Assembly (NCBI RefSeq): GCF_020037015.1
Contig: NZ_JAIQDE010000014.1
Coordinates: 124,001-188,000, forward strand
From: Corallococcus sp. AS-1-6
Lineage (GTDB): Bacteria > Myxococcota > Myxococcia > Myxococcales > Myxococcaceae
DNA: 64,000 nucleotides
Direction of reading: 5' to 3'
Within the stretch, counting starts at the first letter, position 1; each line of letters begins with the position of its first letter. A program made the translations under genes and the position numbers. This document shows positions 41,452-51,800 of this stretch, in pieces. Below the pieces are notes generated by a model. It was not told where the DNA came from and made no database searches. It saw only the letters and a list, made by a program, of their open reading frames with translations.

Positions 41452-43485
41452 TCAGGTGCACATCAGCCACGAGCACTTGCCGGACTGGCACTCGCGGCCG
41501 GAGGAGCACAGCGAGCCCTTGGGGCGCTTGTTCACGCACTTGCCGTCGTTGGTGCCCCAGCCGCAGAACTGGTTCGAGGCGCAGTGCGAGTCCGTGGAGC
41601 AGGTGCAGACGCCCGGGATGTCACCGCAGGCGTCCAACGCGCTGCACTGGTTGGACTTGCACTCCTGGTCGAAGCGGCACGTCTCCGACACCAGCTTGGT
41701 GCTGGGGGCGTAGGCCTTGCCGCAGAGCTTCGGGTACGCCGCCTCGCGGGTGGCCTTGGCGACGTAGGGGTCGACGCCGCCGGTGTCGATGTCGTTCGCC
41801 GCGTCCGCCATGCCGGTGCGGGTGCCGTTGGCGCGCTCCCACATCCGGATGAAGGTCTCCGCGGAGCCCTCCAGGCCCGTGGTGTTGACGCCCAACTGCT
41901 TCAGGTCCTTCACCACGTCCGGCAGGAGGCCCACGTGGGCCAGGCCGTACACGTCGAAGTCGGTGCCCAGCGGCGGCGGGCCGGAGACGCGCTGCTGCTC
42001 CTCCTGCGCGTCCGCCTCCGCGCGGAAGCCCGCGGAGCACGCGCCGAAGTCACCGAAGCGCGGGCGCGTCTGCTGGATGAAGCCGTTCAGGTCCGCGCCG
42101 AAGCCCATGTTGACCTTGAGGCCCTGGCGGCCGAACTCGTACGCCTGCGCGAGCGAGCGCGTGGAGCCCTGGCAGTTGTTGGCCACCGGCGTGCGGTTGT
42201 AGTTGCGCGTCTCGTCGTGCGCGGTGCGCAGGCCGAACATGCCGCCCGTCTGGCGCACGTAGCGGACCACCCACGACGGCGTCGTCTTCTCGTTGGCGGC
42301 CAGGTCCGGGTTCATCACCTCGCGGAAGTGGCCGTGGGAGATGAACAGCGGGTAGTACGTCCGGGCCTGGGACAGGGCGAAGGCGTCCTGGACGCTCTTC
42401 TCGGACATGTGGGCCATGTCGATGAGCATCCCCTTGTTCATCATCTCCTGGACCAGCGCCTGGCCGTCCGCGGTCAGGCCCTTGGTGTTCTTGCAGTTGG
42501 CGTCCACGTCGAAGCCCAGCGTGAAGCCGTTGCCGGTGAGGCCGCAGTCCGTATCGATGTGACAGTTCTCCAGGAACTGGGCCACCTGGAAGATGGCGTT
42601 GTGCGGGGCCGCGCCGCCAAAGCGGTTGTCCAACTGGTGCACCGGCTGCAACGAGCGCACGCCCAGCGAATAGACGCGGTTCAGCTCCGCGCGCCAGTCC
42701 TTGGTGCCGAAGAGCTTGCTGGACTCGATGGAGAGCACCATGGCGAGCTTGCCCTGCGAGATGATCTGCCGGGCGTGCGCGGGCGACAGGGCGATCTCCG
42801 CCCAGTCCGTGCGCGCGTCGAAGTCGCGGGCCATCTGGAGCTGGACGTCCACGTCCATCATCTCGTCACAGGGCCGCTTGAGGTTCTGGTACGGCAGCGC
42901 CTTGCAGAGGAACTCGTTGCTGACCAGCGACACCATGACCAGGGACATGCCGCCCTGGCGGGCCTTGTTGAGCCAGCCCTCCCACGCCTGCTGATGCGCG
43001 ATGGTGTCCCAGCGCGGCCACTGGGTGGGCGTCTCCATGCGGCCCAGGTGCAGGCCGGTGTCGCCCTCGGTGCCCTCCACCTGGCCGATGACCTCCGACG
43101 CCACCGCGCCGCCCACGCCGAAGACGTCCGACAGGATGGGGATGCCGCTCAGGTTCACGCTGCCGGCGTTGGGACACAGGTTGAGCATGTCCCGCAGGTC
43201 CATGCGGACGCGCGCGTGGTCGCTCTCCGGCATGCCGCCGTCACAGCTCGCCAGCGTGCCGGTGTGGCTCCCGTGGAACCACCCGCCGCCGAAGGCCTCC
43301 TCCGCGAACATGTGGTGGTGCATCTCCGCGAAGCCGCTCACCGCCAGCGGCTGGGCCGCCTGCGCGGGCGCCTCCGGGGGAGCGGGCGGCTCGTCGGTGA
43401 CGGGGCCGCAGGCCAGCGCGAGCGACGTGGCCGCGAGCAGCGGTGAAGACAGAAATCTTGAGACAATTCGGGAGCGACGCGACAT
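41452..43485 (-). CDS. M19 (membrane dipeptidase)-like lipoprotein with Cys-rich C-terminus
   Basis: A 677-residue exported protein. The signal ends with lipobox LALAC at residue 26. The barrel domain carries M19 motifs: EMHHHMF (in place of the usual HxD), LSIESSK for the bridging glutamate, LIDMAHMS and LFISHGHFREV for the histidines, and MGFGADLNG for the aspartate. The C-terminal 80 residues hold many cysteines (TCRFDQECKSNQCSALDACG, then CTCSTDSHCASNQFC and CSSGRECQSGKCSW), like small disulfide repeats of secreted myxobacterial proteins. It may be a metal-dependent surface peptidase or an altered paralogue. The ATG at 43485 follows AAGG; a GTG at 43494 is too close to it. Confidence 0.82.
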   Translation of the reverse strand: MSRRSRIVSRFLSSPLLAATSLALACGPVTDEPPAPPEAPAQAAQPLAVSGFAEMHHHMFAEEAFGGGWFHGSHTGTLASCDGGMPESDHARVRMDLRDMLNLCPNAGSVNLSGIPILSDVFGVGGAVASEVIGQVEGTEGDTGLHLGRMETPTQWPRWDTIAHQQAWEGWLNKARQGGMSLVMVSLVSNEFLCKALPYQNLKRPCDEMMDVDVQLQMARDFDARTDWAEIALSPAHARQIISQGKLAMVLSIESSKLFGTKDWRAELNRVYSLGVRSLQPVHQLDNRFGGAAPHNAIFQVAQFLENCHIDTDCGLTGNGFTLGFDVDANCKNTKGLTADGQALVQEMMNKGMLIDMAHMSEKSVQDAFALSQARTYYPLFISHGHFREVMNPDLAANEKTTPSWVVRYVRQTGGMFGLRTAHDETRNYNRTPVANNCQGSTRSLAQAYEFGRQGLKVNMGFGADLNGFIQQTRPRFGDFGACSAGFRAEADAQEEQQRVSGPPPLGTDFDVYGLAHVGLLPDVVKDLKQLGVNTTGLEGSAETFIRMWERANGTRTGMADAANDIDTGGVDPYVAKATREAAYPKLCGKAYAPSTKLVSETCRFDQECKSNQCSALDACGDIPGVCTCSTDSHCASNQFCGWGTNDGKCVNKRPKGSLCSSGRECQSGKCSWLMCT

Positions 43486-43638: not shown

Positions 43639-44781
43639 ATGGCGGCCACCGACACGTTCCCCGACCCTCCGCTCCCGGAGCTGCTGAAGCGCGCGGGACT
43701 CCTGCGGCGTCAGGGCCGGTTTGGCTCGGCCACCCAGTTGCTATGGGCCAGGTTGGAGAGCAACGCCTCGCTCATCGAGCTGTGCCGGAAGGGCTCGGAG
43801 CGCATTGCCGGTAGCGAAGCCATCCTGGCCCAATGCGATCAAAAGCTGGAAGTCGCCCGGCGCTGTCTGGACAAGCCGACGCGGCGCTGGTCCTTCACCT
43901 TCTGGGAGGTCCTCCACGAGGTGGACGGGCTGCTGCTGCTCGTGATGCCCCAGGCCATGCTGGTGCCGCGAGCACTGGAGATCCAGCAGCAGTTCGAGCG
44001 CCGGGTGACGGACGCGCGAGCCGCGCTCTGGCTCGGCACGGACAGGAGGAACGGGCCCCTGCCCCATTGTGTGCGCAGGCTCGCCCGGCTGGACACGGAC
44101 GGCTGCTGCGCCTCCACCTCCCCGCCCCTCGGCGGGGAGGAGCTTGGCTACTGCCGCCACGTGCTGCGCGGCGCGCTCGACACCGTCAACCAGCAGGTGG
44201 ACAAGACGTTCTGGCAGCTCTCCATCAACGTCTCCCTGCAGGTCTTCAGCACGCTGATGCTGCTGGGGGTCTTCATCGTCTCCGCCTTCCTGCTGTCCCA
44301 GAATTTCGTCGAGGACTGGCCCCATACCCTGGTGCGAAAGGGCCTGCTGCTCATCGGCCTCGCGGGGGCCTCCGGGGCCATCGCCTCCAACATGCTGTCC
44401 AAGGAGCGCTTCGTCGTCGCCACGGGGGCGACGAGCCGCTACTTCGCCTACCACCTGATGGTGAAGCCCGTCATCGGCGCGTTCGCGGCGCTGATGCTCC
44501 TCTTCCTGGAGCGGTCCCGCCTGCTGCTGTCCGTGGAAACACGGGACGCTTCCAGCAGCGCGGACACCGGCTCCGCCATCCTCCACATCGTCGTGAACGA
44601 CAACCAGGCGGCCTTCTTCACCATGGTCGCGCTGGCGGTGGTCGCGGGCTGGTCCGCGGACAGGCTCCTGGGCTCCGTCATGGACAAGGTGCTGAGCAAG
44701 CTCCTGGGCCAGTCGGAGAAGGTGCTGCCTCCGCCCGGTCCCCCGGTGCCTCCCTCCGAGCCGCTCCCGGAGGCGCAGTGA
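43639..44781 (+). CDS. Four-helix membrane protein beside RADAR (candidate accessory)
   Basis: A 380-residue protein. Residues 1-190 are soluble and helical. Hydrophobic segments follow at about 191-220, 231-252, 272-290 and 323-340, ending in AGWSADRLLGSVMDKVLSKL and a Pro-rich tail. Its stop is 3 bp from the rdrB stop on the other strand, so the two messages must run into each other. Known RADAR loci may carry a small membrane partner (Csx27-like or SLATT-type). This one is larger and I cannot match it to either family. Start uncertain: ATG 43639 has no clear ribosome site and a longer start at 43573 is possible. Confidence 0.7.
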   Translation: MAATDTFPDPPLPELLKRAGLLRRQGRFGSATQLLWARLESNASLIELCRKGSERIAGSEAILAQCDQKLEVARRCLDKPTRRWSFTFWEVLHEVDGLLLLVMPQAMLVPRALEIQQQFERRVTDARAALWLGTDRRNGPLPHCVRRLARLDTDGCCASTSPPLGGEELGYCRHVLRGALDTVNQQVDKTFWQLSINVSLQVFSTLMLLGVFIVSAFLLSQNFVEDWPHTLVRKGLLLIGLAGASGAIASNMLSKERFVVATGATSRYFAYHLMVKPVIGAFAALMLLFLERSRLLLSVETRDASSSADTGSAILHIVVNDNQAAFFTMVALAVVAGWSADRLLGSVMDKVLSKLLGQSEKVLPPPGPPVPPSEPLPEAQ

Positions 44782-44784
44782 CGC

Positions 44785-47571
44785 TCACGCGGGCGCGTGG
44801 GCCTCATCCCGGCGCACGGCCCTCCGGGTGAAGTGGGCCAGGGCTTCCAGCAGCTCGTCCGCCATGTGCAGCGCGCCAGGCCTCCACGGCACGGTGAAGC
44901 GCGCGTCCATGCTCGTCTGGCGGATGTTGGACAGCCACTCGTGCACCTGCCGCTCGGAGTAGCCCGCGCTGCGCGCCGCCTCGTGCAGCAGGGAGTACTC
45001 GCGCAGCAGGAAGGTGGAGAACGTGACCGGGTCGTCCGCGCCCAGCGCGATGGGGACGGGCGGCGGCGCGCCCTCCTCGGCGCACGGGGGATTGAGGCGG
45101 AGGATGGGGTGGTTGCGAAGGTCCAGCAGGTTGCCGATGAGCAGGTTGCTGGACGGGTTCACCTCCACCACGGTCCCCCGCGCGCCCACGTGCCGGCGCA
45201 TCGCGGCCTGCACCGACCGGAGCGTGGCGATCTCCGATGCGTCCAGCGGGATGTCCACCAACTGCTGCCCGCGCTGGAACACGCGCTCGTCCTCCCGGTA
45301 GGCCATGAGGACGCGCCGCACGTGGGCGGCGTTGAGCACCCGGCTCCAGTTGAGGCGGCGGAAGGCCCGGCTGAAGGCGTCCAGGCCCACGCCTCCCTCG
45401 TCGCGCGCCAGCGGCGGGCACCACAGGTTGTGCAGCACGTGGTGCGCCTCGGCCAGCACGTGCGGCGCCACGCACCTGCCGAAGACGGCCTCGGACAGCT
45501 CGCGCAGGAGGTTCTCCACCCGCTGCGGCCGTCCGGGTGGGGCCTCCGCGGACAGCGCCAGGGGCAGCCGGTAGTCGCTGTACAGCCGCCACTCGAAGAC
45601 CAGGTCCCACAGCCGGTCCTCGGCCGGCATCATCACCGCGCCCACGGACTCGGCCCACGCCCCGGGCTCCACGCCCAGCGCGGTGGCGTGGCCCAGCCGC
45701 CCTCCCGTGCGGTCCAGGAGGTAGTGCACGCTCTCGTAGATGCGGCGCAGGCCCTCCATGAGGTGCCGGTAGTCCTCGCCCACGTGCGATGTCAGCTTGA
45801 GCGGTGGCGCGCCCCGTGACTCCCGCTTCGCCGCGGCGCGCGCGGCGCCCCACCGGATGTAGCGGTACAGCGGCGCCAGCACCCACGTGGGCACGCTCAG
45901 CTCGTCCGACGCCACGTCCAGTCCCCGCACCAGCCAGAGCGACAGCGGCACCGCCCGCAGCAGGTCCACCAGGGCCTCCACCTGCACGGACTGCGCGGCG
46001 AAGTAGTCCGAATAGCGCCCGCCCAACTGCACGCGCCGCTCGGGCACCGGCTCCGCGTACGTCCCCATGCCGTGGGCGGGCGGCTGTCCCTGCGCCCAGT
46101 GGTGGCTCGGGTCCCGGTCCTTGATGAGGTGCATCACCACGCCGAACTCCGGCGACCGCCCATCCGCGACGCGCTCCCCCGTCCGGGTCAGCACGCCCCG
46201 CCATGACCGGGTGAGGGAGGTCAGCTCCTCCGCGATGCGGATGGGGTCGTCCGAGGGGCTCGTGCGCACCTCCAGCGCGGCGATGGGTTGATCCCCGCCC
46301 GCCACCGCGTACGACACCTCCGCGCGCACGGCGCTCAGGGGCCCCTTCATGGCGCGCGGACGGCCATAGAAGCGGATGAACCATTGGAGCCCCGCGGTCA
46401 GCGGCCGCTGCACGTAGGCGCGGTAGCTGAGGCACCGCACGCGCTGGACCTGCCAGAAGAGGCGCTCGAAGTGCACGTCCTGGAGGCCCGTGTGCTCCAG
46501 GGCCGCCAGGTGCTTCAGGCCCGAGCGCACCAGCCAGCGCTCGCCTCCATTGGGCGTGTCCAGCCGCAGCCGGAGCGCGATCGGATCACACCGCCGCCAC
46601 ACCTCGTCGAGCGTGGCCGGGGGCTCGGTCACGTTGTGGGTCGCCAGCGGATGCAGATCCTCATAGAGGCCGCGCAGCTCATACAGGTCGGGGAGGATCT
46701 CCGAGCGGCCCCTGGAGAGCGCCTCCAACGTCCGCGCGAGCACGCGCCTGCGCTGCGGCAGCCAGGCCCGGGACTCGGAGAGGCCGCGCACGAAGTCCAG
46801 GAGCAGGGGCGTCTCGCGGCGCAGCAGGAGCTCCGCGAGGACACAGCGGGTCACCGCGGCCGCCAGCAGCCAGCACAGCATCCGCTCCCCGTCCTCGAAG
46901 GGCACCCCGGGCCCCTTCAGCGACTTCGCATCCAGGTCTGGATCCCCCACGGCGGACAGCAGCGAGGCCCACAGCAGCGGGAAGTCCATGCCCGCGCCGA
47001 CGTGGTGGTGGACCTCCGCCACGCCGCGATCCAGCAGGTGCCGCACCAGCAGGGGCGGCTCGATGTCCACGCGCGTGGGAGGCGGCTCAACCGGCACGGC
47101 CGCCAGCAGCAGGTCCTCCGGCATCGCGAAGGTGAGCCAGCGGTAGTGCGTCAGCGCCTCCACCGCCTCCGCGCCCGTGCCCTGGAAGATGACCGTGACG
47201 CCGGGCCGCCGCTCCAGGTGGGTGTCCGCCAGGTTCCGCAGGTAGTGGAACATGGACACGCCCTGGCGTGGGGACTGCCGGTGGCGGGCGTGTCCTCGCG
47301 ACGGGAACCAGAACGCGTCGCGCACGGCGATGATCCGATCCAGCGACCAGCCGCTCGCGTGCTCCGACAGGCGCTTCTCGCACTCGCGCCAGAGCGCCCA
47401 GGTGGAGCCGTCATCGCTCGCGTCCGGAGACGGCTCCAGCTCCGTCACCGCCGAGCGGAAGGCCTCGATGCTCGTCAGCGGAAAGCTGGCGACCTCCGCG
47501 CGCACGTACGCCTCCGGGACGCGGCGGGGGGCCAGACTGCCGGCGGGTGGGCGCGAGCCGTCCTGGTTCAC
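44785..47571 (-). CDS. rdrB: RADAR deaminase RdrB (divergent adenosine deaminase)
   Basis: A 928-residue protein with a scattered adenosine-deaminase active site: HxH at His188/His190 (AEVHHHVGAGMDFPLLW), His596 with Glu599 (TSHVGEDYRHLM), His628 (GRLGHATALG), Ser808-Asn809 (NPSSN), and Asp846-Asp847 (ALGADDPVTFS). Large insertions separate these motifs, as in RdrB. It is proposed to deaminate adenosine in RNA or adenine nucleotides upon phage infection, causing growth arrest. The GTG at 47571 overlaps the rdrA stop by 4 bp, so translation is coupled; a longer frame reaching back to 48156 inside rdrA is rejected. Confidence 0.9.
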   Translation of the reverse strand: MNQDGSRPPAGSLAPRRVPEAYVRAEVASFPLTSIEAFRSAVTELEPSPDASDDGSTWALWRECEKRLSEHASGWSLDRIIAVRDAFWFPSRGHARHRQSPRQGVSMFHYLRNLADTHLERRPGVTVIFQGTGAEAVEALTHYRWLTFAMPEDLLLAAVPVEPPPTRVDIEPPLLVRHLLDRGVAEVHHHVGAGMDFPLLWASLLSAVGDPDLDAKSLKGPGVPFEDGERMLCWLLAAAVTRCVLAELLLRRETPLLLDFVRGLSESRAWLPQRRRVLARTLEALSRGRSEILPDLYELRGLYEDLHPLATHNVTEPPATLDEVWRRCDPIALRLRLDTPNGGERWLVRSGLKHLAALEHTGLQDVHFERLFWQVQRVRCLSYRAYVQRPLTAGLQWFIRFYGRPRAMKGPLSAVRAEVSYAVAGGDQPIAALEVRTSPSDDPIRIAEELTSLTRSWRGVLTRTGERVADGRSPEFGVVMHLIKDRDPSHHWAQGQPPAHGMGTYAEPVPERRVQLGGRYSDYFAAQSVQVEALVDLLRAVPLSLWLVRGLDVASDELSVPTWVLAPLYRYIRWGAARAAAKRESRGAPPLKLTSHVGEDYRHLMEGLRRIYESVHYLLDRTGGRLGHATALGVEPGAWAESVGAVMMPAEDRLWDLVFEWRLYSDYRLPLALSAEAPPGRPQRVENLLRELSEAVFGRCVAPHVLAEAHHVLHNLWCPPLARDEGGVGLDAFSRAFRRLNWSRVLNAAHVRRVLMAYREDERVFQRGQQLVDIPLDASEIATLRSVQAAMRRHVGARGTVVEVNPSSNLLIGNLLDLRNHPILRLNPPCAEEGAPPPVPIALGADDPVTFSTFLLREYSLLHEAARSAGYSERQVHEWLSNIRQTSMDARFTVPWRPGALHMADELLEALAHFTRRAVRRDEAHAPA

Positions 47572-50195
47572 GAGTGCAGTTGGATGCGGGAGGCGTCCAG
47601 CCCCGGCACCACCTCCGCCAGCGGATCCCCCATGTGGTCCACCACGGCGAACCAGGCGTTCACCACGGTGTCGAGCCACTCCTGATACCTGGCCGAAGCA
47701 GGCCCGCCGTCCGCGCCGAGCGCGCTCCGGAGCGACTCGGCCGTATTGGAGAAGTGCACCGCTTCGCGCACCCGCTGGCGCCGGAGCGCCGCCAACCGGA
47801 TCCCCTGGGCACGCCAGTCCTTCAGCAGGGCATCCCACCCGGAGCCTGCACCCGGGGCTCCAGCCGGCGACGGCAGCAGGTCCCGCGCATCGGAGGCGAG
47901 CGCGAACTCCGGCAGGACCTGGAGCGGGAGCGTGTTGCGCAGCCAGACCCGCGCCGTCCACTCCCGGCCATACACGGCGCTGCCCTTGGCGCAGTGGGAG
48001 ACGAGTTGCTCCACCTGTTGGCGCACCCGCGTTTCGTAATCCGTGACCCTGGCCTGACTCAGCTCGGGCTTCAGCACGGACATGACGCCGGGGTCCCCCT
48101 TCCAATGCCAGTGGCCCAACGGATCGCCCGCCACGGAGCAGATGTTCTCCACCCACGCCGCCTGGATGAGGCGGGCGCGCAGGTTGGCGTCCTGGGAGTC
48201 ATTGAGGAACTCCAGGGGGAGCTGACCGAGGAACGCGCGCCACTGGGCGGTGAGGATGGCGAACTCGATGAAGGTGCTCCACGAAGGAGGCGTCCACCAG
48301 GAGTCCACCTGGACGAACGGCGTCCCGTTCGTGTGCTCCACCCAGAGCTCGTGGACGGTCACGACCATCTCCGGGCTCATCTCGAAGGGCGTCACGTTCG
48401 CGCTCAGCACGCGGGGCTGCTCGAACAGCATCAGCACGTCATGCAGGATCATGAACCAGCCCGCGACGTTCGCGGGCATCGGCGCTTCGCGGCCGGCTCC
48501 CGTCAGCTCCTTCAACACCAGCACCACGTCGTGGAAGCGGCGCAGGTGGATCTCCGTGCTCAGCAGCCGGTCGTGCGATTGCGGTCCGTCTCCGTCCAGG
48601 TCGCCGGGGATCCCCCGCAGGACGCCATGGAGGCTGGTGCGCTTGACGCGACGGACGGGCTTGCCGGTCAGGTCCAGGAAGACGCGTCCCTGGTCGTCAT
48701 GCCGGAGAATGCGGTGGAGCAATTGCTCGCTCGCCCAGGCCGGCAGGTCGCTCTCGTCGATGGCGTTGCGGAGCATGTCCTTGGCGATCCGGACCGCGGC
48801 CCCGCCCTGCTCCTGAGCGCTGAAGCCAGGGGTCGATGAGCCAGGTCCATGGACCTCACGCCGGACCGCATGCCAGAGGTCCTGCAGGGTCCGCGCGGGC
48901 AGCCTGAGGGCGTTCCTGCCGGCGTGGGTGAGGATCGGCTCGTCCTTGAGCGCGCTGGATTCGTGCGCCTGCTGACCGTCATCGGCGGCGACGGCGTCCC
49001 GGTAGGCCCGCGCCACGTCGGCCTGGAGTTGATGCTTCAGGTCGAAGAGGGCGGCGAAGGATTTCAGCAGCGGTTCCCCGCTCCGCGCTCTTCCCGGCAA
49101 GTCGATGCGTCCCAGGAACTGGCCCAGGGATTCGCTCTTCCCTCCCTCCACGGTGAAGTGCCAGGCCTCGTAGGGCTCCACCGGCCTCAGCGAGATGCGG
49201 TAGCTGGGGGGCAGCGCCCGGCGCAGCGTGGTGGCGGCCTGCCGCCGGGCGATGGCGAGCGTCTCCTCCTGATCGCTCACGCCGATGCCGGCCTGTCCGG
49301 AGACGATGAACTCCTTCTGGAAGGAGCGCTCCATGAAGCGCTGGAACTCCTGGTGGCCCGCGGCCAGCACGAACCAGAGGTGGCGGCTGGCCACCATGCG
49401 CGTGAGCTTCACGATGTTGTAGAGGTGCTCGATGCTGCGGTCGACGTTGTCGATGGGCAGCACCAGCAGCACCTGGTCCCCCCCGGACGGACCGAAGCGC
49501 GGCATGGCCAGCGTGCGGGCCACGTCCTCCATGGCCTCGGCGAAGCGCGTCTGGAAGTTGGCGTAGATCTCCGACGCGCGGATCTGCTGCTCCGCGCGCA
49601 CGCGGGCATCGGTGGTGGCCGGGATGTCCTCCCACATGAACGACGCGTCACGGATGAGGTGATCCAGCTTCCCCCACGTCTCCTCCGCGCCCTCCTCCAG
49701 GATGGAGGAGGACCATCGCGCGGACTCACCCTGCGCGCCCTTCACGTGCCGCTGCTCGTCCAGCGCGGCCCGCACGCGGACCAGCAGCGTGGCCAGCAGG
49801 TTGGCATTGGGCGAAACGGGCTCCAGGTCGAGCGGCTCCAGCCAGTGGATGCGCCGCTCCAGCCGTTCGAGCATCCGCGCCAGCTCGACTTCGTGCCCCG
49901 AGTCACCGACGAAGTGCTTTGAGTCCGTCAGGGCCTGCACGGCGCTGAGCAGGAGGGTCGTCTTCCCGGAGCCACGGTCACCGGAGATGAGGAGGCTGGT
50001 GGACAGGTGCTCGTTCTCGTGGCCCGCGACTCGCGCGCTGTTCTCGCAAGCGGCCTCCAGCCAGGAGAAGAGCTTCCCGAGTCCCTCGCGGGTGGAGGTC
50101 AGCAACTGCGCCCACTCGAAGGCCCGGGCCTCCGGAAGGGGGGTGGGCAGGTACGGCGTGCGCGCGCCCGGGGCGCTGTCCGGTGTCGTTGCCAT
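47568..50195 (-). CDS. rdrA: RADAR ATPase RdrA
   Basis: An 875-residue P-loop NTPase. Walker A is GDRGSGKTT (72-80) and Walker B is VLLVLPIDNVD (about 242-252) with Asp249 and Asp252. LEPLDLEPVSPNANLLATLL near residue 120 is a family signature of RdrA-like ATPases. The rest is a long helical region with no membrane segment. RdrA and RdrB assemble into large complexes and together abort phage infection in other bacteria. The ATG at 50195 has only a weak ribosome site. It is the first gene of the operon; the promoter lies in the 135-bp gap shared with the divergent formate dehydrogenase operon. Confidence 0.88.
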   Translation of the reverse strand: MATTPDSAPGARTPYLPTPLPEARAFEWAQLLTSTREGLGKLFSWLEAACENSARVAGHENEHLSTSLLISGDRGSGKTTLLLSAVQALTDSKHFVGDSGHEVELARMLERLERRIHWLEPLDLEPVSPNANLLATLLVRVRAALDEQRHVKGAQGESARWSSSILEEGAEETWGKLDHLIRDASFMWEDIPATTDARVRAEQQIRASEIYANFQTRFAEAMEDVARTLAMPRFGPSGGDQVLLVLPIDNVDRSIEHLYNIVKLTRMVASRHLWFVLAAGHQEFQRFMERSFQKEFIVSGQAGIGVSDQEETLAIARRQAATTLRRALPPSYRISLRPVEPYEAWHFTVEGGKSESLGQFLGRIDLPGRARSGEPLLKSFAALFDLKHQLQADVARAYRDAVAADDGQQAHESSALKDEPILTHAGRNALRLPARTLQDLWHAVRREVHGPGSSTPGFSAQEQGGAAVRIAKDMLRNAIDESDLPAWASEQLLHRILRHDDQGRVFLDLTGKPVRRVKRTSLHGVLRGIPGDLDGDGPQSHDRLLSTEIHLRRFHDVVLVLKELTGAGREAPMPANVAGWFMILHDVLMLFEQPRVLSANVTPFEMSPEMVVTVHELWVEHTNGTPFVQVDSWWTPPSWSTFIEFAILTAQWRAFLGQLPLEFLNDSQDANLRARLIQAAWVENICSVAGDPLGHWHWKGDPGVMSVLKPELSQARVTDYETRVRQQVEQLVSHCAKGSAVYGREWTARVWLRNTLPLQVLPEFALASDARDLLPSPAGAPGAGSGWDALLKDWRAQGIRLAALRRQRVREAVHFSNTAESLRSALGADGGPASARYQEWLDTVVNAWFAVVDHMGDPLAEVVPGLDASRIQLHS

Positions 50196-50330: not shown

Positions 50331-51800
50331 ATGAAGCCAGGGCAGCACACCCCCGAACTCGAATCCTTCTACCACCTCGGGCCCGGCCCCCTGGGGACGC
50401 ATGCCTGCCATGGCACCGCCTGCTTCGTCGCGCGCCACCTGGATGCCGCGCGCTGGCGGCAGGCCACCTCGGGTGACACCCGCGTCTACTGCCTGGGCCA
50501 GTGCTACCGGGCCCCCTCCGTGACGGGAGAGGACGCCCGCCCCGAAGTGCACGTCCGGGCACCGCAAGCCATCACGCTGGGGCGCGTCGCCCAAGGTGGA
50601 GCGCGCGACCTGCCGGAGGCCACCCGCCAGGGCGCCTACGCGGCGCTGGAGCAGGCGCTGTCCTCGCCCCCGGAGGCACTCATCGCGCAGGTGGAGCAGT
50701 CCGGGTTGCGCGGCCGGGGAGGCGCGGGCTTCCCGACCGGACGCAAGCTGCGCGCGGTGGCCGCCGCGCCCGGCGGGGAGAAGACCGTCGTGGCCAACGC
50801 GGACGAGGGCGACGCCGGGGCCTATATCGACCGCTTCCTGATGGAGGACGACCCCCACGCCGTGCTGGAGGGCCTGCTCCTGGCGGCGTACGCGGTGGGC
50901 GCTCGCCGGGGCGTCATCTACGTGCGCAAGGAGTACCCGCTGGCGGCGTGCGCGCTGCACGTGGCCCTGCACGAGGCCCACCGCGAGGGCGTGCTGGGGC
51001 CACGCATCCTGGGCAGCGCGTTCTCCTGCGAGATCTCCATCGAGGTGGGGCGCGGCAGCTACCTGTGCGGCGAGGAGACGGCGCTGCTCAACGCCCTGGA
51101 GGGACGCCGTCCCTTCGTGCGCGCGCGGCCCCCCTACCCCGCCCAGGCGGGCCTGTTCGGCCAGCCCACGCTGGTGCAGAACGTGGAGACGCTCGCCAAC
51201 CTCCCGTGGATCGCGCGCCATGGCGGCGAGGCCTACGCGGCGCTGGGAATCCCAGGCAGCCGGGGCACGAAGGTGCTGTCGCTCAACTCGCTCTTCCAGC
51301 GCCCGGGGCTCTACGAAGTGGAGCTGGGCACGCCGGTGCGCACCGTGGTGGAGGAGCTGGGAGGCGGGCTGCGCACCGGACCGCTGAAGGGCGTGCTCAT
51401 TGGAGGGCCGCTGGCGGGCATCCTCCCGCCACGGCTGCTGGACACCCCGCTGGGCTTCGAGGAGCTCCGGGCCGTGGGCGCCTCCGTGGGGCACGGCGGC
51501 GTGGTGGCCTTCGACACGCACACGTCCATCGCCGCGCTGGTGCACCACGTCTTCTCCTTCGGCGCGTACGAGTCGTGCGGAAGGTGCACGCCGTGCCGCA
51601 TGGGGGCCCGGCACGTCGAGCAGCTCTTCGCGCGCGTGCTGGAGACCGGCGCCGCCCCCCGTGCCGGCGCCGCGGACTGGGAGGAGGTCGCCGAGGCGCT
51701 GCGCCTCACGAGTCTGTGTGGACACGGCACCGGCCTGGGGGAGTTCGCCCGGAGCGTGCTGCGCTACTACCGGGAGGAGGTGGAGGCATGCTTCGGGTGA
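50331..51800 (+). CDS. NAD-dependent formate dehydrogenase beta subunit (NuoF/FdsB-like, with NuoE-like N-terminus)
   Basis: A 489-residue flavoprotein subunit that passes electrons from the formate dehydrogenase catalytic subunit to NAD. Residues 1-75 resemble a shortened NuoE/FdsG 2Fe-2S domain, with Cys26, Cys31, Cys54 and Cys58. The NuoF part follows: GRGGAGFPTGRKL for NADH, VVANADEGDAGAYIDRFLM for FMN, GRGSYLCGEETALLNALEG and CGRCTPCRMGARHV for the 4Fe-4S centre. Fusion of the E- and F-type domains replaces a separate gamma subunit. The ATG follows GGAGGAGG by 7 nt. The stop overlaps the next gene by 13 bp. Confidence 0.88.
   Translation: MKPGQHTPELESFYHLGPGPLGTHACHGTACFVARHLDAARWRQATSGDTRVYCLGQCYRAPSVTGEDARPEVHVRAPQAITLGRVAQGGARDLPEATRQGAYAALEQALSSPPEALIAQVEQSGLRGRGGAGFPTGRKLRAVAAAPGGEKTVVANADEGDAGAYIDRFLMEDDPHAVLEGLLLAAYAVGARRGVIYVRKEYPLAACALHVALHEAHREGVLGPRILGSAFSCEISIEVGRGSYLCGEETALLNALEGRRPFVRARPPYPAQAGLFGQPTLVQNVETLANLPWIARHGGEAYAALGIPGSRGTKVLSLNSLFQRPGLYEVELGTPVRTVVEELGGGLRTGPLKGVLIGGPLAGILPPRLLDTPLGFEELRAVGASVGHGGVVAFDTHTSIAALVHHVFSFGAYESCGRCTPCRMGARHVEQLFARVLETGAAPRAGAADWEEVAEALRLTSLCGHGTGLGEFARSVLRYYREEVEACFG

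What the first reader, a model, noticed from the sequence alone, without database searches (positions are those of the whole stretch)
43639..50195. RADAR anti-phage locus in a myxobacterial chromosome
RdrA (Walker A GDRGSGKTT, Walker B, LEPLDLEP signature) and RdrB (HxH, HVGE, GRLGHA, NPSSN, GADDP deaminase ligands with large insertions) overlap by 4 bp between chromosomal housekeeping-type genes. RADAR stops phage growth through adenosine deamination in RNA or adenine nucleotides. Defence systems of social bacteria are little studied, and the membrane gene beside it could define a variant.
Basis: partly seen in the sequence, partly recalled or inferred. Interest (0 to 1): 0.85.

Follow-up and report, generated by a model that had tools for sequence, protein, structure and literature searches.

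The report
Divergent three-gene RADAR defence locus
A soil bacterium of the genus Corallococcus carries a distant relative of the RADAR anti-phage system, which is thought to poison the cell's ATP during infection, with an unrecognised membrane protein that travels with it and an altered ATPase site.

Summary
rdrA (47568-50195, -) and rdrB (44785-47571, -) overlap by 4 bp, and a membrane gene (43639-44781, +) converges on rdrB. RdrB is a clear RdrB homologue: NCBIfam 1.5e-45, E. coli RdrB 2e-26, catalytic residues conserved. RdrA is very divergent: NCBIfam 1.1e-7, profile-profile 8e-9. Both lie far below curated cut-offs, so this is a sister clade of characterised RADAR. Clade-wide, RdrA has Asn at the second Walker B acid (E. 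coli D222); the 14 other RdrAs compared keep Asp.

The membrane protein (four predicted TM helices, no known family) is very likely part of the locus. It adjoins rdrB in 14 of 14 genus genomes with this RdrB, sits beside RADAR in two other arrangements, is absent with rdrAB from an empty site, and shares their raised synonymous divergence.

Likely mechanism: infection-triggered (d)ATP-to-(d)ITP deamination by RdrB, gated by RdrA (inferred from E. coli), with membrane coupling (hypothesis). Verdict: new variant of a known kind, moderately interesting.

The parts
47568..50195 (-). rdrA-like AAA+ ATPase gene, 875 aa; Walker A residues 72-79 GDRGSGKT, Walker B I248-D249-N250-V251-D252, sensor-1 position H281
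44785..47571 (-). rdrB-like adenosine-deaminase-fold gene, 928 aa, GTG start, 4-bp overlap with rdrA; predicted ligands H188, H190, H596, H628, D846 and catalytic E599
43639..44781 (+). membrane protein gene, 380 aa, convergent with rdrB (3 bp between stop codons); helical N-terminal part about 30-190, four predicted TM helices about 202-220, 231-249, 272-290, 317-347
41452..43341 (-). flank: peptidase M19-family gene; marks one edge of the insertion site, low synonymous divergence (not part of the system)
50331..51800 (+). flank: NuoF-like subunit gene, divergent from rdrA (not part of the system)

Best explanation
This is a divergent, chromosomal RADAR-type anti-phage locus with three genes. 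RdrA, an AAA+ ATPase whose fast-evolving C-terminal part is the likely infection sensor, assembles on RdrB. RdrB, a zinc adenosine-deaminase-fold enzyme, then converts (d)ATP to (d)ITP and stops phage growth at the cost of the cell. The convergent gene encodes a four-TM membrane protein with a helical N-domain that works with the complex, most likely as a membrane anchor or sensor, less likely as a pore effector. Shown here: homology of both enzymes, conservation of the RdrB catalytic residues, and co-inheritance and joint presence/absence of the membrane gene. Inferred from E. coli RADAR (PMC9994260): assembly, substrate, trigger and abortive outcome. Hypothesis: the role of the membrane protein, and any effect of the altered Walker B/sensor 1.
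For: RdrB: PADLOC 4.1e-36, NCBIfam 1.5e-45, E. coli RdrB 2e-26 as a single sequence and 1.6e-34 as a 12-member profile, profile-profile E 2.9e-55 over 716 columns to five RdrBs from plasmids. Equivalents of EcRdrB H152, H154, H498, E501 and H530 (named in PMC9994260) are present in 27 of 27 aligned RdrBs. RdrA: PADLOC 3.5e-5 (9), NCBIfam 1.1e-7, profile-profile 7.9e-9 over 269 columns to five canonical RdrAs and 2.7e-23 to a second myxobacterial clade, which itself matches canonical RdrA at 1.9e-19. Five control proteins reach at best 2.4e-4, over 25-54 columns. Membrane gene: next to the clade-A rdrB in 14 of 14 genus genomes that have that RdrB (27, 28); co-directional after rdrB in G157 and G041, divergent from rdrA of the second copy in G000; missing with rdrAB from the M19 site in G084, G086 and G089; dS above that of the M19 flank in 10 of 10 genome pairs for all three genes; 9 of the 10 rows in its clade of the family tree lie at or near RADAR, 0 of the other 6.
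Against: No activity or phage data were found for this clade. Both proteins score far below the NCBIfam equivalog cut-offs (156 of 800 bits; 30.7 of 600). Against single canonical RdrAs the clade-A profile gives only 1.3e-5 to 8.3e-4, overlapping the best control (2.4e-4, but over 27 columns). RdrA has lost the second Walker B Asp and the sensor-1 Asp. A 12-member RdrA profile finds no RdrA in the PDB at E<=10, nor does the single sequence at E<=1, and the RdrA model was unusable (mean pLDDT 36). The membrane gene is not universal: 6 of 8 clade-A loci outside the genus lack it next to rdrB. 'RADAR-adjacent' as a label needs 3 changes on the membrane-protein tree, not 1 (12 of 500 shuffles as low). 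The locus is near-universal in the genus, unusual for a patchy defence system.
Confidence: 0.8

Rival explanations
1. rdrAB is the whole defence system and the membrane gene is only a neighbour that hitchhikes in a variable chromosomal site.
For: Five clade-A RADAR loci (G132, G101, G062, G126, G099) have no such gene beside them. The family also has members away from RADAR. In G098 the membrane gene lies on another contig than rdrAB.
Against: Adjacency in three orientations, joint absence from the M19 site and joint presence at another site, shared raised dS, grouping on the family tree.
Confidence: 0.2
2. The locus edits RNA (A-to-I) rather than the nucleotide pool, as first proposed for C. 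rodentium RADAR.
For: The original RADAR report as summarised in PMC7699616 (passages).
Against: PMC9994260 reports ATP/dATP deamination and no editing of a hairpin RNA by purified E. coli RdrB; this RdrB keeps the same ligand set.
Confidence: 0.12
3. The complex is a domesticated nucleotide-metabolism or developmental machine of Corallococcus, not immunity.
For: Present in 14 of 16 genus genomes, with unremarkable G+C.
Against: Raised dS as a block and fast protein evolution of RdrA and the membrane protein, presence at different sites with empty sites elsewhere, a second divergent copy: features expected of exchanged defence genes.
Confidence: 0.1

Closest known systems
RADAR (RdrA-RdrB) of E. 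coli, C. rodentium and S. suis
   Same: Tandem ATPase and deaminase genes; same zinc and catalytic residues as E. coli RdrB; motif spacing like that of the E. coli-type RdrB; RdrA similarity limited to the ATPase part, as PMC9994260 reports between characterised systems.
   Different: RdrB 928 aa against 799 in the E. coli structure; far below curated cut-offs; RdrA Walker B DN instead of DD and no sensor-1 Asp; extra membrane gene of no known family.
SLATT- and Csx27-associated RADAR subtypes (recalled from Gao et al. 2020; seen only as passages in PMC7699616 and PMC11676413)
   Same: A RADAR pair with an accessory membrane protein. A SLATT gene directly follows rdrB in the Aureibacter plasmid locus L110.
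   Different: This protein has an N-domain of about 190 aa and four predicted TM helices, no SLATT match, no profile match to the Aureibacter SLATT protein, and in Corallococcus is convergent rather than in the operon.
YLATT and DUF4257 membrane families (Pfam)
   Same: Weak similarity in the last TM helix (YLATT 0.039 in 1 of 18 members; DUF4257 in 4 of 18 members, best 0.0014).
   Different: Below the curated cut-off where scores were shown (window protein: YLATT 14.3 of 26.7 bits, DUF4257 12.1 of 27) and covering about 30-40 residues only.

Membership tests
RADAR | rdrA and rdrB in tandem on one strand | tested here: met
   4-bp overlap; rdrA precedes rdrB on the same strand in the clade-A loci mapped (the second copy of the genome is split over two contigs)
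RADAR | RdrB homologous to characterised RdrB with the His tetrad, catalytic Glu and Asp of adenosine deaminases | tested here: met
RADAR | RdrB insertions that split the deaminase core (only the spacing between ligand motifs was tested) | tested here: met
   first His to HxGE 408 residues here, 346 in the Pantoea protein, which has the E. coli numbering; HxGE His to GH His 32 in both; GH His to DD 218 in both (other rows vary)
RADAR | RdrA homologous to characterised RdrA in the ATPase domain | tested here: met
   controls and weaker single-sequence matches in 106; no hit in the PDB searches
RADAR | RdrA active site as in E. coli: Walker B D221-D222 and sensor-1 D253 (a trait of E. coli RdrA named in PMC9994260; the Walker B pair is kept in the other RdrAs compared, sensor 1 only in part) | tested here: not met
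   N250 and H281; N250 invariant in 12 of 12 clade-A RdrAs of A5. Walker A is present; R435 is a likely sensor-2 Arg, not verified against E. coli R377. I do not treat this trait as defining the family, but it is the reason to call this a variant
NCBIfam equivalogs NF041743 RdrA and NF041744 RdrB | score above the curated cut-off | tested here: not met
   30.7 of 600 and 156 of 800 bits
RADAR | RdrB dodecamer with RdrA heptamers docked on it | not testable with these tools
   needs purification and EM; the RdrA model was unusable, RdrB was not modelled
RADAR | (d)ATP-to-(d)ITP conversion on infection and phage protection | not testable with these tools
   bench assay needed
SLATT-associated RADAR | SLATT domain in the membrane protein (Pfam profile match) | tested here: not met
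   no SLATT model at E<=1 for the window protein nor at E<=0.1 for 18 family members
Csx27-associated RADAR | Csx27 homologue | tested here: inconclusive
   no Csx27 match in PADLOC or NCBIfam, but whether these libraries hold a Csx27 model was not checked

The most novel reading that the evidence does not exclude
A membrane-coupled RADAR subtype in which RdrA is a slow or non-hydrolysing, ATP-binding switch (Walker B DN, sensor 1 lost) and a new four-TM protein is the third core subunit, sensing phage at the envelope or acting as a second, membrane-damaging effector, so that trigger or output differs from all characterised RADAR.
Probability: 0.25. Interest if true: 0.75.

Novelty: new variant of a known kind. 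Interest (0 to 1): 0.52.

Why it matters
What triggers RADAR is named as unknown in the paper that solved its structure (PMC9994260). A clade with an altered RdrA active site and a co-inherited membrane partner offers natural variants to test whether ATP hydrolysis is needed and whether sensing happens at the envelope. It also shows a clade, nearly fixed in a genus of social predatory bacteria, that lies far below the curated RADAR cut-offs.

Tried and rejected
Structure prediction of RdrA (6 sequences) gave mean pLDDT 36 and was not searched. The membrane-protein model (5 sequences; the contig-truncated L003 copy left out) had mean pLDDT 53 with a poor TM region. Foldseek gave no hit at E<=0.001 and VIA-align gave only generic helical matches (Z up to 8.4), so no fold claim is made.

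Pattern-seeded scans of viral contigs with the three alignments found no relative. tblastn of the membrane protein found none in plasmids or phages at E<=0.01.

The YLATT and DUF4257 leads were rejected as non-significant; one PADLOC (CARF, 0.0087) and two NCBIfam weak hits, each in 1 of 18 members, were also set aside. The membrane-family profile finds nothing useful in the PDB. Accessory membrane proteins of two other RADARs (VanZ-like in Cetobacterium, SLATT in Aureibacter) are not detectably related to it.

Literature: 4 papers held RADAR with RdrA and RdrB, 4 held Csx27 with RADAR, none held RADAR with myxobacteria or Corallococcus in the term sets tried. One search listed one preprint on nucleotide signals in anti-phage defence that mentions Myxococc-; I saw only its listing. 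A YLATT/SLATT search returned only word-start noise in the rows shown. The library is open-access only.

Rows dropped before counts: my simple gene caller missed or truncated some genes (RdrB of L082, L085 and L093, the membrane gene of L068, some starts), so these are quoted from tblastn or ORF calls or left out. Clade-B RdrAs used were 6; the truncated calls from L090 and L094 were left out. A4 holds 18 membrane-family rows (near-identical further genus members and short fragments left out), and the tree the 16 over 300 aa. One RdrB (G081) was read one codon short of its start.
Full report
WHAT IS THERE. The window lies on contig 5 of a 9.5-Mb genome, inferred to be Corallococcus (close relatives; two same-genus genomes have contigs of the lengths of the C. 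terminator and C. praedator contigs). rdrA (47568-50195, minus, 875 aa) and rdrB (44785-47571, minus, GTG start, 928 aa) overlap by 4 bp. On the plus strand a 380-aa membrane gene (43639-44781) converges on rdrB with 3 bp between the stop codons. Neighbours are a peptidase M19-family gene and a NuoF-like gene. G+C does not stand out.

FAMILY ASSIGNMENT. RdrB matches PADLOC RdrB at 4.1e-36, NCBIfam RdrB at 1.5e-45 but 156 bits against a cut-off of 800, and E. coli RdrB in the PDB at 2e-26. Profile to profile, 13 clade-A RdrBs match five RdrBs from plasmids at 2.9e-55 over 716 columns. RdrA is weaker: PADLOC 3.5e-5 and NCBIfam 1.1e-7, 30.7 bits against 600. Profile to profile, 11 clade-A RdrAs match five canonical RdrAs at 7.9e-9 over 269 columns and a second myxobacterial clade (B, 6 sequences) at 2.7e-23; clade B matches canonical RdrA at 1.9e-19. 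Against single canonical sequences the match is weaker (1.3e-5 to 8.3e-4 in five of five, over 64-250 columns). This overlaps the best control: five other proteins gave E 2.4e-4 to 0.66, but over 25-54 columns only (the ABC, GTPase and kinase labels of three controls are read by eye, the helicase and histidine kinase come). PDB searches with the RdrA sequence and with the clade-A profile found no RdrA. So membership of RdrA rests on the profile match, on the intermediate clade and on the operon with RdrB. Limited similarity outside the ATPase domain is what PMC9994260 reports between characterised RdrAs.

ACTIVE SITES. The residues PMC9994260 names for E. coli RdrB (H152, H154, H498, H530, E501) correspond to H188, H190, H596, H628 and E599. 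They and the DD pair at 846-847 are present in 27 of 27 aligned RdrBs. Spacing of the ligand motifs is like that of the Pantoea protein, which has E. coli numbering. In RdrA, Walker A is intact, but Walker B reads IDNVD. N250 is invariant in 12 of 12 clade-A RdrAs of A5, and the second copy in the genome also reads IDNVD. The second acid is Asp in 5 of 5 plasmid RdrAs and 6 of 6 clade-B RdrAs, in E. coli (D222) and in two more plasmid RdrAs. The sensor-1 Asp (E. coli D253) is His, Gln or Arg in 11 of 11 clade-A RdrAs; of 6 clade-B RdrAs 3 have Gln and 3 Asp there, and of 5 plasmid RdrAs 4 have Asp while the Aureibacter row does not align to Asp. Asn at this Walker B place could slow hydrolysis, or the later Asp (D252) could serve; this is undecided.

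DISTRIBUTION. Of 195 Myxococcota genomes searched, 32 have an RdrB match (G016 and G188 only short ones) and 27 a match to the membrane protein (G065 and G091 only short, weak ones). In the genus (16 genomes), 14 have a clade-A RdrB and the same 14 have the membrane gene beside it, convergent (in G078 it is split over two contigs). G086 has only a 37%-identical RdrB and no membrane gene, and G088 has neither. Outside the genus, 8 genomes have clade-A RdrB. The membrane gene is beside it in 2 of these 8 (G157 and G041, both co-directional after rdrB; the G041 gene runs off its contig). G098 has a member on another contig, and G062 has a member of the unlinked group elsewhere. In three genomes of another genus (G112, G122, G127) a relative of the window's membrane protein (61-62% identical) lies three genes from a clade-B RADAR, while G126 has the same clade-B locus without it.

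SECOND COPY. The window's genome holds another RADAR: membrane gene and rdrA, divergent, at the end of contig 5, and the rest of rdrA plus rdrB (64% identical) at the start of contig 1. Both contig ends leave rdrA homology at about the same residue (654 and 646 of the query), which suggests a repeat or inserted element in that rdrA.

THE MEMBRANE GENE BELONGS TO THE LOCUS. (1) Adjacency in three arrangements, as above. (2) In G084, G086 and G089 the M19 site is empty: M19 is followed directly by the next conserved gene, with rdrA, rdrB and membrane gene all absent; G084 and G089 carry all three at another site. (3) Nei-Gojobori dS for five genomes: in 10 of 10 pairs all three genes exceed M19 (M19 0.076-0.146; membrane gene 0.167-0.294; rdrB 0.164-0.307; rdrA 0.144-0.374). 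For the window against two genomes, two genes on the far side have 0.086-0.137. The estimate ignores codon bias. (4) In a tree of 16 family members, 10 fall on one side of a fully supported branch (100/100). Of these, 7 adjoin RADAR, 2 lie three genes away and 1 (G098) only shares its genome with RADAR; the other 6 are not beside RADAR (L056 is a 3.2-kb contig). Against this, 'RADAR-adjacent' as a label needs 3 changes on that tree (12 of 500 shuffles as low). In the RdrB tree of 27, clade A is one side of a branch (100/100), and loci with the membrane protein beside them fall, with G098, in one subclade of 8 rows (99/100). dN/dS is 0.29-0.76 for the membrane gene, 0.39-0.62 for rdrA, 0.19-0.30 for rdrB and 0.10-0.29 for M19. 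The proposed sensor and the membrane protein change fastest and the enzyme slowest, as expected if the first two face the phage (inference).

WHAT THE MEMBRANE PROTEIN IS. No family is significant: YLATT 0.039 in the window protein, DUF4257 best 0.0014 in 4 of 18 members, no SLATT, nothing in PADLOC or NCBIfam for the window protein. Hydropathy gives four TM segments in 16 of 16 full-length members; 13 of 16 show a further, mostly weaker N-terminal peak that falls in the helical domain. The model supports a helical N-domain only (residues about 30-150 and 165-190). Its role is a hypothesis.

MECHANISM. From PMC9994260 I read the outline and abstract, parts 1-2 of 4 of the Results, the Results sections on nucleotide targeting and ATP-to-ITP conversion, the Discussion, and passages. 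It shows for E. coli that RdrB alone turns ATP and dATP into ITP and dITP, that RdrA enhances this and that both active sites are needed in vivo, and proposes that the RdrA C-terminus senses infection. With the RdrB catalytic residues conserved here, the same chemistry is the best guess. The RdrA differences and the membrane protein are where this clade may depart from it.

NOVELTY. Searches for RADAR with myxobacteria or Corallococcus returned no paper (open-access library). RADAR with accessory SLATT or Csx27 is known from reviews (passages). So: a known kind of system, in a divergent clade with a new membrane partner and an unusual ATPase site.

Noticed in passing
G000 contig 5 end (L068 9265-12828) and contig 1 start (L067 1-3602): Second RADAR copy of the same genome, with its own divergent membrane gene; rdrA is split across two contig ends, with non-rdrA sequence at both, so it may be interrupted by a repeat or mobile element.
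   Followed up: partly
L150, L151 (G088): At the site next to the M19 gene, G088 carries giant ORFs (up to 3711 aa) that look like non-ribosomal peptide synthetase genes (recalled reading of the protein starts, no profile run) instead of RADAR; the site seems to be an accessory-gene hotspot.
   Followed up: partly
L086, L087, L088, L090: A second myxobacterial RADAR clade (RdrB about 30% identical to the window's) with conserved flanking genes; a relative of the window's membrane protein lies three genes away in three of the four.
   Followed up: partly
L096 7743-10334: A member of the unlinked membrane family sits after a caspase-domain gene (PF00656) and a small gene without a Pfam match: possibly another conflict system.
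   Followed up: no
L107 1946-8178: In a Cetobacterium plasmid the RADAR pair is directly followed by a VanZ-family membrane protein gene.
   Followed up: partly
L109 1622-9641: In a Rhizobium plasmid an adenylosuccinate synthetase gene lies about 0.9 kb after RADAR, possibly relevant to IMP/ITP metabolism.
   Followed up: no
E. coli genomes: DNA similar to Pantoea rdrA occurs in 4 of 5426 complete E. coli genomes; in strain 1303 the stretch after rdrA is annotated as two CDS, the second 'adenosine deaminase', so rdrB may be split there.
   Followed up: no
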